From the NCBI RefSeq assembly GCF_006716885.1, contig NZ_VFPU01000001.1:248001-312000 (forward strand): a stretch of DNA of 64,000 nucleotides, in the 5' to 3' direction. A program made the translations under genes and the position numbers. Source of the DNA: Ornithinimicrobium humiphilum. GTDB taxonomy: Bacteria > Actinomycetota > Actinomycetes > Actinomycetales > Dermatophilaceae. The notes beneath the pieces are model-generated. The model was given only the letters and a program-made list of their open reading frames with translations. It was not told where the DNA came from and made no database searches. Below, piece by piece: positions 6,661-9,124 of the stretch (its first letter is position 1; every line of letters starts with the position of its first letter).

Positions 6661-6677
6661 ATACCCCCCGAGGGTAT
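6661..6677. promoter_or_regulatory. CsoR-type operator
   Basis: ATACCC-N5-GGGTAT is an A/T-flanked, G-tract dyad of the type bound by CsoR (GTATAC-like ends around C/G tracts). It ends 10 bases upstream of the csoR start codon on the minus strand, where bound repressor would block the copper operon promoter. Confidence 0.75.
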
Positions 6678-6705: not shown

Positions 6706-7317
6706 TCAGGGCGCGAACTCGCAGAACGTCTCGTAGTGGTCGTCGGTGTAGTACCAGACCTCGGGGTCGCGGGCGTCGCCGCCGGTGATGATCCGTCGGG
6801 CGCCGCGGTGGTGCAGGCCGGGGGTCTCGACGGTGTACTCGCGGTAGTAGCCGCGGCGCTCGTCGGGCAGGTAGCCCTCGTAGTTGCCGAAGGTCGAGCC
6901 GTCCTTGCCAGGGTAGGCGAACGGGCCGCCGTCCTCGACGTCGTCGGCGACCTCGTCCAGCTCGGGCGGGAGGATGCTGTCGCGGCAGGCGTCGATGCCG
7001 TCCCAGTCGCGGGTGTCGGTGCCGGTGGGCCCGGTGTCGGCGACGGACGGTGTCGGCGTGGGGCTCGGCGACGGTGTTGCGCTCGGCCGCGAGGGTGGCG
7101 GCGAGGGCTTCGGCACCGCCGAGGTGGCGGGGGCCGAGGACGCCGACGGTGTGGCGCTCGGGAAGGTGGCGAACGTGCTCGGCGGGGCGGTCTCCCCGGC
7201 GGGAGCCCCCGCCGTGCCGTCCTCCGACCCGCCCGCCATCGTCCGCACCACCAGCCAGACGACGGCCGCGAGGCAGATCAGCGCGAGGACGAGAGACCCG
7301 CGTCCTGCGCGCTTCAT
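6706..7317 (-). CDS. membrane-anchored guanyl-specific RNase, RNase Sa/barnase (N1/T1) family
   Basis: 203 residues: an N-terminal signal-anchor helix (about 8-25), a long Ser/Pro/Ala-rich linker (about 40-92), and a microbial ribonuclease domain (about 108-203). The domain follows RNase Sa closely: LPPEL, DGGPFAYPGKDG, YYREYTVETPG, RRIITGG and YYTDDHYETF. The catalytic set is present: base Glu160, Arg174/Arg175 and acid His194. Cys111 and Cys199 match the single disulfide of RNase Sa, fitting an extracytoplasmic location. Its ATG at 7317 overlaps the barstar-like gene stop (ATGA), so toxin and inhibitor are co-translated. Likely an exported or surface RNase; whether it is released, as an anti-competitor toxin, is inference. 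Confidence 0.88.
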   Translation of the reverse strand: MKRAGRGSLVLALICLAAVVWLVVRTMAGGSEDGTAGAPAGETAPPSTFATFPSATPSASSAPATSAVPKPSPPPSRPSATPSPSPTPTPSVADTGPTGTDTRDWDGIDACRDSILPPELDEVADDVEDGGPFAYPGKDGSTFGNYEGYLPDERRGYYREYTVETPGLHHRGARRIITGGDARDPEVWYYTDDHYETFCEFAP

Positions 7318-7685
7318 CGGAGCTCGTCCTTCGGCCGGCCGAGCCGCGCCTCGCCGAAGGCCACGACCGTCAGGTCGTCGGCGTCGTCGAGGATCTCGGC
7401 GAGCAGCCACCACGAGCGGCCCTCGGCGACGGCCAGCCGCTCGGCGTCCTGCCAGAGCAGGGCCACCTGCGAGGTGCCCCAGATGTCCGGCAGGTCGCGC
7501 AGCGAGTCGACCATCGCGTCGAGGTTGCCGGCCGCGGTCGCGGGCAGGCGCAGGGCGCGGGCGATCTCCGCCTGCGACGCGCGCAGCCCGCCCTCGAGGG
7601 GGGTGACGGCGGAGGCCACGGCATACCCCCGCTCGAGGAGCCAGGCGGTGACCGGCTCGAGCTGGTCGGCGGGCAGCAGGTGCAT
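7314..7685 (-). CDS. barstar-like RNase inhibitor
   Basis: This 123-residue protein matches the barstar family: a start region with alternating hydrophobics, the hallmark GNLDAMVDSLRDL helix (about residues 53-65), LLWQDAERL, and a final strand DLTVVAFGEA. Barstar binds the active site of barnase-type RNases in the cytosol, protecting the producer. It is coupled on both sides: its start overlaps the purB stop by one base (TGATG) and its stop overlaps the RNase start by four. The inhibitor is thus always translated before the enzyme. The pairing with a genuine RNase Sa-type enzyme makes the assignment strong, although the acidic contact residues cannot be mapped with certainty by eye. Confidence 0.85.
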   Translation of the reverse strand: MHLLPADQLEPVTAWLLERGYAVASAVTPLEGGLRASQAEIARALRLPATAAGNLDAMVDSLRDLPDIWGTSQVALLWQDAERLAVAEGRSWWLLAEILDDADDLTVVAFGEARLGRPKDELR

Positions 7686-9124
7686 CAGCGGGTCAGGTGG
7701 TCCACGAGCTGTGCCGCGATGCCGGTGTAGCCGGCGGGGGTGAGAGCGACGAGACGCTCCTCCTCCTCGGCCGGCAGCCCCAGCCCGCGCACGAACTCCA
7801 CGAGCTCGGCCTGGCCGATGCGGCGGCCGCGGGTGAGCTCCTTGAGCCGCTCGTAGGGGTTGGTCATGCCCTCCACGCCGCGGGCGGCCAGCGCGCGCAT
7901 CACCGACTGGATCGGCTCGGCGAGCACCTCCCAGTTGGCGTCGAGGTCGGCGGCCATCGCCTCGGGCACGGCGTCGAGGCCGGCGAGACCGCGCGAGGCG
8001 TTGTCGAGCGCCAGCAGGCTGTGGCCCAGCGCGGTGCCGATGTTGCGCTGCATCGAGGAGTCGGTGAGGTCGCGCTGCAGACGGCTGTTGACGAGGGTCG
8101 AGGCGAGGACGTCGAGGAGGGCGTTGGAGACCTCCAGGTTGGCCTCGGCGTTCTCGAAGCGGATCGGGTTGACCTTGTGCGGCATCGTGCTGGAGCCGAC
8201 CGTGCCCTGCCCGCGGACCTGGGCGAAGTAGCCCATCGAGATGTAGGTCCACACGTCGGTGCAGAGGTTGTGCAGGATGCGGTTGAAGCGCGCGACGTCG
8301 CTGTAGAGCTCGGCCTGCCAGTCGTGGCTCTCGATCTGCGTCGTCAGCGGGTTCCAGGTCAGGCCCAGGTGCTCGACGAACGTGCGGCTGACCTCCTGCC
8401 AGTCCGCGCCGGGCACCGCCTCGACGTGGGCGCCGTAGGTGCCGGTCGCGCCGTTGAGCTTGCCCAGGTAGGTCGTGCCGCTCACCCGCTCCAGCTGGCG
8501 CCGCAGCCGCCAGGCCAGCACGGCGAGCTCCTTGCCCATGGTCGTCGGCGTCGCCGGCTGGCCGTGGGTGTGCGCCAACAGTGGCACCTCGCGCAGGTCG
8601 TGCGCCATGCCGACGAGCTGGTCGACGAGGTTGACGGCCCTCGGCAGCCAGACCTGGGTGATCGCGCCCTGGACCATGAGGGCGTAGGAGGTGTTGTTGA
8701 TGTCCTCGCTGGTGCAGGCGAAGTGGACGAGCTCGGACAACGATGTCGCCCGCGCGGGGTCGTTGCTGCCGACGATGCCGACGAGGCGGCGGCGCAGGTA
8801 GTACTCGATCGCCTTGACGTCGTGGACGGTCTCGGCCTCGATCTCCTTGAGCTCGGCGATCGCGGCGGCGTCGAAGTCGGTGACGAGCGCGCGCAGCGCC
8901 TCCTGCTCGGACGCCGACAGCGTGTCGGCCCCGGGGACGACCTCCTGGGTCGTCAGGTGGATCAGCCACTCGACCTCGACGTGCAGGCGGGCCCGGTTGA
9001 GGGCGGCCTCCGACAGGTGGTCGACCAGCGGGGCGACGGCGCCGCGGTAGCGGCCGTCGAGCGCGCCGAGGGCGATCGCCGGGTCGAGCTCGGACAGGGG
9101 CGTGCGGGCGGCAGGCAGCGGCAT
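7685..9124 (-). CDS. purB: adenylosuccinate lyase
   Basis: A 479-residue fumarase/aspartase-superfamily enzyme that splits SAICAR and adenylosuccinate in purine synthesis. Visible family features are the N-terminal ALDGRYRG segment, the ACTSEDINN and HTHGQPATPTTMGKE catalytic blocks, and the flexible signature loop GSSTMPHKVNP (active-site Ser). Length and the E. coli-type start fit the PurB subgroup. ATG at 9124. The stop shares one base with the start of the barstar-like gene, so this housekeeping gene heads an operon that also makes an RNase/inhibitor pair. Confidence 0.96.
   Translation of the reverse strand: MPLPAARTPLSELDPAIALGALDGRYRGAVAPLVDHLSEAALNRARLHVEVEWLIHLTTQEVVPGADTLSASEQEALRALVTDFDAAAIAELKEIEAETVHDVKAIEYYLRRRLVGIVGSNDPARATSLSELVHFACTSEDINNTSYALMVQGAITQVWLPRAVNLVDQLVGMAHDLREVPLLAHTHGQPATPTTMGKELAVLAWRLRRQLERVSGTTYLGKLNGATGTYGAHVEAVPGADWQEVSRTFVEHLGLTWNPLTTQIESHDWQAELYSDVARFNRILHNLCTDVWTYISMGYFAQVRGQGTVGSSTMPHKVNPIRFENAEANLEVSNALLDVLASTLVNSRLQRDLTDSSMQRNIGTALGHSLLALDNASRGLAGLDAVPEAMAADLDANWEVLAEPIQSVMRALAARGVEGMTNPYERLKELTRGRRIGQAELVEFVRGLGLPAEEEERLVALTPAGYTGIAAQLVDHLTR

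What the first reader, a model, noticed from the sequence alone, without database searches (positions are those of the whole stretch)
6706..9124. RNase Sa-type enzyme and barstar inhibitor built into the purB operon
purB, a barstar-like gene and an anchored RNase Sa/barnase-family gene overlap by 1 and 4 bases, so a toxin-type RNase and its antidote depend on translation of a housekeeping purine gene. The RNase keeps all catalytic residues (Glu160, Arg174/175, His194) and the RNase Sa disulfide pair, but is tethered by a signal anchor and an unusual ~50-residue Ser/Pro linker. Order inhibitor-then-enzyme would protect the cell during synthesis. It could be a contact or shed antibacterial RNase, or a nucleic-acid scavenger feeding purine salvage.
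Basis: partly seen in the sequence, partly recalled or inferred. Interest (0 to 1): 0.75.

Follow-up and report, generated by a model that had tools for sequence, protein, structure and literature searches.

The report
Inhibitor-first surface RNase gene pair
A bacterium carries a gene for an RNA-cutting enzyme, probably held on its cell surface, that overlaps the gene of its own inhibitor by four letters, in the reverse of the order seen in most such pairs.

Summary
purB, a divergent barstar and an RNase Sa-type gene lie in a row on the minus strand, overlapping by 1 and 4 nt. Models show a barstar fold, and an RNase Sa domain behind a helix and a low-confidence linker. The genus is Ornithinimicrobium by contig-length match. 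The tether is not unusual: paired relatives in the family share it. The purB link is partial: 17 of 26 pairs in the genus overlap purB. What stands out is gene order: of 135 RNase hits in 186 family genomes, 84 have barstar downstream (29 genera) and 36 upstream (4 genera). The upstream barstars group together; their RNases form one clade with 8 unpaired secreted relatives within the family, but not in a wider tree. NTGA stands at the junction in 38 of 38 inhibitor-first and 56 of 56 enzyme-first loci examined, seldom at neighbouring stops. Best reading: an envelope-held guanyl-type RNase with a translationally coupled cytosolic inhibitor. Export, binding and use are untested. New variant of the known barnase-barstar kind.

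The parts
7685..9124 (-). purB, adenylosuccinate lyase (479 aa); its stop TGA 7685-7687 overlaps the barstar ATG by 1 nt
   Evidence: NCBIfam NF006764 653 bits; sequence
7314..7685 (-). divergent barstar of the inhibitor-first group (123 aa)
   Evidence: PF01337 42.4 bits; AlphaFold2 mean pLDDT 89.8; best PDB match barstar 1bgs_E, TM 0.76 of target, 19% identity
7314..7317 (-). ATGA junction: start codon of the RNase overlaps stop codon of the barstar
   Evidence: sequence; NTGA in 38 of 38 inhibitor-first and 56 of 56 enzyme-first loci examined; neighbouring-gene control
6706..7317 (-). RNase Sa-type ribonuclease, probably membrane-tethered (203 aa)
   Evidence: PF00545 76.9 bits; RNase Sa chains, E down to 4e-19
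7234..7302 (-). N-terminal hydrophobic helix, residues 6-28: probable signal anchor; a cleavable signal peptide is not excluded
   Evidence: AlphaFold2 helix 6-28; hydropathy and a weak TMA motif ending at residue 28
6991..7233 (-). Ser/Pro/Thr-rich linker, residues 29-109
   Evidence: ten-residue blocks from 31 to 110 have pLDDT 53-72; 50-112 residues precede the domain in inhibitor-first relatives other than the frame-affected G113 and G129
6709..6990 (-). RNase Sa domain, residues 110-203, with E160, R171, R175, H194 and Cys pair C111/C199
   Evidence: best PDB match RNase Sa3 1mgr, TM 0.87 of target, 45% identity; alignment; conservation

Best explanation
The cassette makes a guanyl-type (RNase Sa family) ribonuclease that is exported and held in the cell envelope by an N-terminal anchor and flexible linker, where it cuts RNA outside the cell. 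The upstream barstar shows no export signal, should stay in the cytosol, and blocks enzyme molecules not yet exported. The ATGA junction lets a ribosome that ends the inhibitor start the enzyme, so that enzyme is made behind inhibitor and in fixed proportion. In the window's branch the set is also coupled to purB, which would give steady expression. The inhibitor-first order probably arose once, with its own barstar subfamily, at or near a locus that in other genera holds a secreted relative without an adjacent inhibitor. Shown: genes, folds, catalytic residues, junction, order, co-inheritance. Inferred: anchoring and topology, binding, coupling by re-initiation, action on external RNA, the single origin. 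What the activity is for (nucleotide scavenging seems slightly more likely than killing neighbours) is a guess.
For: Catalytic set retained and RNase Sa fold. Barstar fold; the positions of barstar N33, D35 and D39 are kept in 36, 37 and 37 of 37 distinct inhibitor-first rows (barstar numbering recalled). By my reading, a true lipobox in 10 inhibitor-first proteins (5 Ornithinimicrobium, 5 Arsenicicoccus) where the others have a hydrophobic anchor: a change of tether type that keeps the protein outside. C111 in 36 and C199 in 37 of 37 inhibitor-first rows, both in 8 of 8 secreted unpaired relatives (7 purB-linked, plus G075), neither in any of 56 enzyme-first rows, which fits a disulfide in an oxidising place. 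NTGA junction 38 of 38 and 56 of 56; stop context [AG]TGA in 35 of 36 barstars against 0 of 36 csoR, 1 of 25 copA, 6 of 48 RNase and 16 of 41 purB. RNase and barstar distances correlate, r = 0.81 over 36 inhibitor-first pairs. Inhibitor-first barstars lie on one side of a branch. In the genus all 27 genomes with an RNase match keep a barstar match.
Against: No complex model could be run. The canonical aromatic/Gly motif is lost in the inhibitor-first barstars (domain position 33 is Ala in 37 of 37), so binding may differ. Enzyme-first pairs have similar anchors and the same junction, so anchoring does not explain the inversion. A loose cleavage-motif scan flags 20 of 39 inhibitor-first rows, 45 of 56 enzyme-first rows and the window itself (TMA) as possibly cleaved. 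The single origin is not borne out by the RNase trees: inhibitor-first rows need 2 changes in the family tree (one clade in 3% of bootstrap trees) and 3 in the wide tree, where the 46-row clade breaks up too (5 changes, 2 forced by starred branches); there only 35 rows with the window stay together. The first wide tree, with very long rows, was worse (7 changes). G084 and G086 have such RNases and no barstar match. In 3 of the 38 inhibitor-first loci the RNase frame does not follow from the NTGA. The distance correlation partly reflects shared ancestry. dN/dS values are biased by GC-rich codons.
Confidence: 0.55

Rival explanations
1. Antibacterial surface toxin with immunity: the anchored RNase, or fragments shed from it, enters competing cells and the barstar is an immunity protein.
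For: Barnase-like domains with barstar immunity are a listed polymorphic-toxin pair (PMC3482391, passages seen). The RNase domain sits on a long linker.
Against: No delivery domain: no other Pfam family reaches its cut-off in P0001. One RNase match in most matching genomes. None of 16 placed barstars that lie away from a PF00545 match falls in the inhibitor-first group (12 of 17 such family loci and 4 from the order sample; two of the 16 lie next to an RNase-like fragment or distant RNase). Inhibitor-first order is opposite to the toxin-then-immunity order of such systems. None of this tests killing.
Confidence: 0.2
2. Toxin-antitoxin-like device acting on the cell's own RNA: the inhibitor must be premade because the enzyme can act inside, for example when the envelope is breached.
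For: Inhibitor-first order with overlap resembles type II toxin-antitoxin modules (recalled). The RNase match never stands without a barstar match in this genus.
Against: Predicted export by anchor or lipobox, and a conserved Cys pair. No PADLOC match for P0002; the one for P0001 (PD-T4-6, E 0.0012) covers residues 9-100, the anchor and linker. No DNA-binding family reaches its cut-off in the inhibitor (a MarR_2 match has 13.1 bits against 27).
Confidence: 0.12
3. Order without meaning: a barstar gene happened to insert between purB and an existing RNase gene, and the overlap is ordinary operon compaction.
For: In g14 and g35 an RNase of the same family clade without adjacent barstar follows purB, directly (74-176 nt) in 4 of 7 genomes and within 3.3 kb in the other 3. 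Four-nt overlaps are common in bacterial operons (recalled).
Against: NTGA at 94 of 94 junctions across both orders, against mostly CTGA at csoR, copA and RNase stops (the control covers the inhibitor-first and unpaired loci only). The inhibitor-first barstars form a group and co-vary with their enzymes. Tree polarity at the base of the clade is unresolved.
Confidence: 0.25

Closest known systems
RNase Sa / Sa2 / Sa3 of Streptomyces (PF00545)
   Same: fold, active-site residues, 36-47% identity in structural matches
   Different: the known ones are soluble secreted enzymes (recalled); this one has a probable anchor and a linker, and its second Cys is at the Ser90 position instead of Cys96
Barnase-barstar pair (PF00545 + PF01337)
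   Same: enzyme and inhibitor families; barstar fold; acidic positions D35 and D39
   Different: inhibitor gene first; inhibitor lacks the P-x-[YWH]-[FY]-G motif and is 19% identical to barstar in the structural match
Simple barnase-barstar gene pairs with toxin-immunity order, Zhang et al. 2012 (PMC3482391; passages seen, section 41 read whole)
   Same: non-polymorphic RNase-barstar pair
   Different: order inverted; that paper explains toxin-first order by export making a premade inhibitor unnecessary
Type II toxin-antitoxin modules
   Same: inhibitor first, overlapping genes (recalled)
   Different: enzyme predicted to be exported; no DNA-binding family above cut-off in the inhibitor

Membership tests
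Ribonuclease family PF00545 (RNase Sa / barnase) | profile match above cut-off and RNase Sa fold | tested here: met
   76.9 bits against 24; TM 0.87 to RNase Sa3
Ribonuclease family PF00545 (RNase Sa / barnase) | catalytic Glu, Arg, His retained | tested here: met
   E160, R171, R175, H194
Ribonuclease family PF00545 (RNase Sa / barnase) | RNA cleavage after guanosine | not testable with these tools
   needs an enzyme assay
Barstar PF01337 | profile match above cut-off and barstar fold | tested here: met
   42.4 bits against 23.4; best PDB match barstar chain 1bgs_E, E 7.9e-4
Barstar PF01337 | acidic residues D35 and D39 that meet the active site (role recalled) | tested here: met
   Asp in 37 of 37 distinct inhibitor-first rows at both positions
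Barstar PF01337 | inhibits its cognate RNase | not testable with these tools
   no complex prediction or assay possible
Polymorphic toxin system | toxin-then-immunity gene order | tested here: not met
   inhibitor first in the window and 37 other loci; rule from section 41 of PMC3482391
Polymorphic toxin system | delivery or trafficking domain | tested here: not met
   only PF00545 above cut-off in P0001
Polymorphic toxin system | orphan immunity genes of the same type | tested here: inconclusive
   0 of 16 placed barstars in the inhibitor-first group, but 5 of 17 family loci were not placed
Type II toxin-antitoxin system | toxin acts in the cytosol | tested here: inconclusive
   anchor, lipobox and Cys pair argue for export, but location was not measured

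The most novel reading that the evidence does not exclude
RNase-barstar pairs exist in two stably inherited opposite gene orders, each locked by the same NTGA overlap. The rare inhibitor-first order marks a lineage whose surface-held enzyme is dangerous to its maker before or after export, so that a premade inhibitor is required. That would run against the accepted reason for toxin-first order and make gene order a readable sign of where a toxic enzyme is active.
Probability: 0.15. Interest if true: 0.7.

Novelty: new variant of a known kind. Interest (0 to 1): 0.45.

Why it matters
Gene order in toxin-inhibitor pairs has been explained by export: exported toxins need no premade inhibitor, so the toxin gene comes first (section 41 of PMC3482391). 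Here a natural inversion exists inside one enzyme family, among members of one bacterial family, with the same junction and similar N-terminal parts in both orders. That gives matched systems in which the roles of order, overlap and anchoring can be tested. It also suggests that, in this bacterial family, an envelope-held RNase Sa-type enzyme rather than a freely secreted one is the form that comes with an inhibitor, which a localisation experiment could check.

Tried and rejected
Unusual linker: rejected. In the family a hydrophobic stretch plus linker precedes the domain in both gene orders. Among 79 named relatives scored, 67 enzyme-first rows have a median of 56 residues before the domain, but the shortest (28-41) include ones that look like ordinary cleavable signal peptides.

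purB as a partner by function: not supported as general. The pair overlaps purB in 17 of 26 loci of the genus. deoD (purine nucleoside phosphorylase) is the nearest gene found upstream of barstar in G107, G111, G112 and G130. These belong to one branch, so this counts as one event and is weak support for a purine-salvage role.

Mobile or viral origin: no relative in viral contigs or phages. In plasmids 16 records match the RNase, none over 80% of its length, and none match this barstar.

PADLOC match of the RNase (E 0.0012): rejected, it covers residues 9-100.

Direction of the order change: unresolved. Cleavage calls: the motif scan (inhibitor-first SPI? 20, LIPO 11, TM 6, none 2; enzyme-first SPI? 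45, LIPO 6, TM 5; unpaired SPI? 9, none 1) is too loose to separate anchors from signal peptides. Of its 11 inhibitor-first lipobox hits I kept 10 and discarded G129's, where the hydrophobic stretch runs on.

Rows dropped: L074, L077, L084 as duplicates; L178 and L146 (distances); L178; also L275, L262 and L278, and four named loci already present. One of two identical inhibitor-first barstars is counted once (37 distinct of 38). The enzyme-first sample is 56 of 84 loci, the first 27 of them chosen by high score. G120's purB is split in the assembly and G013's barstar start could not be set, so neither informs purB spacing. Second domains of tandem RNases are left out of the conservation counts.

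Full report
What is there. On the minus strand, purB (7685-9124), a barstar gene (7314-7685) and a ribonuclease gene (6706-7317) follow one another with overlaps of 1 nt (TGATG) and 4 nt (ATGA). purB matches its NCBIfam equivalog at 653 bits. The RNase scores 76.9 bits with PF00545 and the inhibitor 42.4 bits with PF01337. By sequence the RNase finds RNase Sa and Sa3 (E down to 4e-19). The inhibitor finds no barstar of known structure by sequence, but its model (mean pLDDT 89.8) matches barstar chains best (1bgs_E, TM 0.76 of the target, 19% identity). The RNase model has a helix at residues 6-28, a low-confidence linker, and a domain whose ten-residue blocks from 111 on have pLDDT 90-97; it matches RNase Sa3 (TM 0.87 of the target). 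The genome holds one match to each family.

Organism. I therefore call genus g1, to which the window belongs, Ornithinimicrobium, and g4 Arsenicicoccus.

Distribution. Of 186 genomes of the family (53 genera), 123 have a PF00545 match and 127 a PF01337 match. Cross-tabulated within 3 kb, 135 RNase hits split into 36 with barstar upstream (g1 25, g4 5, g5 4, g32 2), 84 with barstar downstream (29 genera), 0 divergent, and 15 hits in 12 genomes without a Pfam barstar nearby. Two of those 12, G119 and G129, have an upstream barstar found by the window's protein or my own profile; G129's RNase is broken. In the genus 27 of 31 genomes have an RNase match, G129 included, and all 27 match the window's barstar. 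In an order-level sample of 297 genomes 27 have the RNase, 9 of them outside the family; by the coordinates those are 7 enzyme-first, 1 inhibitor-first (G195, family f11) and 1 without barstar match. The pair of G195 has an inhibitor-first barstar. Eight of the 68 are Corynebacterium rows whose barstar scores are weak (14.8-22 bits).

Junction. The four bases at the inhibitor/enzyme boundary are NTGA in 38 of 38 inhibitor-first loci (GTGA 23, ATGA 14, CTGA 1) and in 56 of 56 enzyme-first loci examined (GTGA 32, ATGA 24), out of 84 found. The second gene is in the frame of the tetranucleotide in 35 of the 38 (not in G012, G113 and broken G129) and in all 56 (which takes the start codon nearest to -4). 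In the 68 named enzyme-first loci the spacing is -4 in 40, so the rule is looser outside the family. Control at the inhibitor-first and unpaired loci: [AG]TGA occurs in 35 of 36 barstar stops, 16 of 41 purB, 6 of 48 RNase, 0 of 36 csoR and 1 of 25 copA. The purB/barstar junction varies: -4 in 12 and -1 in 5, all in the genus; the other nine pairs of the genus have +1, thousands of bases, a split purB or no purB in reach.

Lineages. In a careful tree of 102 RNase domains of the family, 37 inhibitor-first rows and 8 unpaired secreted ones form one side of a branch, support 100/99. The inhibitor-first rows alone do not (2 changes; one clade in 3% of bootstrap trees), and early branching is unresolved. 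When named relatives are added, the 46-row set breaks up (5 changes, of which starred branches force 2) and the inhibitor-first label needs 3 changes; with very long rows also included it needed 7. What stays together there is a starred set of 35 rows holding the window and G195. Few columns (94-95) limit all these trees. The barstars are clearer: the two orders lie on two sides of one branch (94), and with named loci and other barstars added, the 38 inhibitor-first rows, G195 included, stay together (85). Inhibitor-first barstars have lost the P-x-[YWH]-[FY]-G motif of the others and keep Asn33, Asp35 and Asp39 (36, 37 and 37 of 37 distinct rows, barstar numbering recalled). RNase and barstar distances correlate within both groups (r = 0.81 for 36 pairs, 0.58 for 55), partly from common descent. 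Median dN/dS in the genus is 0.22 for purB, 0.41 for the RNase domain and 0.53 for barstar, which suggests purifying selection, though codon bias inflates the values and the highest single barstar pair is above 1.

N-termini. By my reading, a true lipobox occurs in 10 inhibitor-first proteins (5 Ornithinimicrobium, 5 Arsenicicoccus), and the scan reports 6 in the enzyme-first sample; the other paired proteins mostly start with a long hydrophobic stretch. The scan's loose cleavage motif also flags 20 of 39 inhibitor-first and 45 of 56 enzyme-first rows, so anchoring is inferred, not shown. Before the domain stand 50-112 residues in inhibitor-first rows (frame-affected G113 and G129 aside) and 55-130 in enzyme-first rows, against 32-46 in the seven purB-linked unpaired relatives of g14 and g35, which look like ordinary secreted enzymes. 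Their seven genomes each hold a separate enzyme-first pair. C111 is present in 36 and C199 in 37 of 37 inhibitor-first rows, both in 8 of 8 secreted unpaired relatives (G075 included), and neither in 56 enzyme-first rows. G084 and G086 carry such RNases with a linker and no barstar match, so an inhibitor is not always needed.

Locus. csoR begins within 150 nt of the RNase domain's end in 11 of 26 pairs of the genus, and csoR also follows the unpaired RNase in all four g14 genomes. G114, which lacks the pair, has purB followed by csoR after about 140 nt. This supports one ancestral site. In g14 and g35 purB directly precedes the RNase in 4 of 7 genomes. deoD is the nearest upstream gene found in G107, G111, G112 and G130; in G110 it lies further off. 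purB is then 2.4 kb away in G111, about 9-12 kb in G110, G130 and G112, and not within the 14.6 kb fetched for G107.

How it probably works. The barstar shows no export signal to my reading and should stay in the cytosol; the RNase should be exported and held in the envelope. Re-initiation at the NTGA would make each enzyme follow an inhibitor and protect the maker until export is complete. The RNA cut would be outside the cell: nutrient RNA, RNA of lysed neighbours, or RNA of competitors. I think scavenging a little more likely than attack, because no delivery domain and no unpaired inhibitor of this group was found, but nothing here tests it.

Literature. Zhang et al. 2012 (PMC3482391; passages, section 41 whole) describe simple barnase-barstar pairs as an incipient toxin-then-immunity order and explain it by export. 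No paper in the library holds both 'barstar' and 'purB'. Listings for barstar with RNase Sa, with polymorphic toxins, with lipoprotein and signal peptide, with operon and actinobacteria, for gene order and coupling, for RNase Sa with disulfide, and for Ornithinimicrobium with ribonuclease showed no title or abstract opening about an inverted order. Of PMC4913263 I saw passages only. The library lacks most subscription journals, so absence from print is not claimed.

Verdict. The pair is real, conserved and has a complete active site. It is a new variant of a known kind: an inhibitor-first, probably envelope-tethered RNase Sa-barstar cassette.

Noticed in passing
window 6661-6677: Palindrome ATACCCCCCGAGGGTAT between the RNase stop and the start (6651, minus strand) of a csoR-type gene (NCBIfam RicR model, 139 bits, below its cut-off of 175): a likely copper-repressor operator (motif recalled), so the copper genes probably form their own transcript.
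   Followed up: partly
L138 and L142 (RNase ORFs, G033 and G031): Two RNase Sa domains in tandem in one secreted protein; the second has Leu for the catalytic Glu and Asp for the catalytic His, so it looks like a non-catalytic copy.
   Followed up: partly
L233, L236, L237, L238, L244 (Psychrobacter): RNase preceded by what looks like a cold-shock domain (PF00313 scanned in one of them, 49.6 bits) and a hydrophobic stretch: an RNA-binding domain and an RNase perhaps on opposite sides of the membrane.
   Followed up: partly
L144, L145 (G086, G084): RNase genes with hydrophobic start and linker in genomes without a barstar match.
   Followed up: partly
L264, L265 (Ornithinimicrobium G110, G130): Second barstar genes of another subgroup, not next to an RNase match.
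   Followed up: partly
L146 (G129) and G123: In G129 the RNase is broken while a barstar is still detectable; in G123 only a barstar remnant with an internal stop was found.
   Followed up: partly
L113, L128, L130, L132: deoD, a purine nucleoside phosphorylase gene, is the nearest gene found upstream of the barstar in one branch of the genus.
   Followed up: yes
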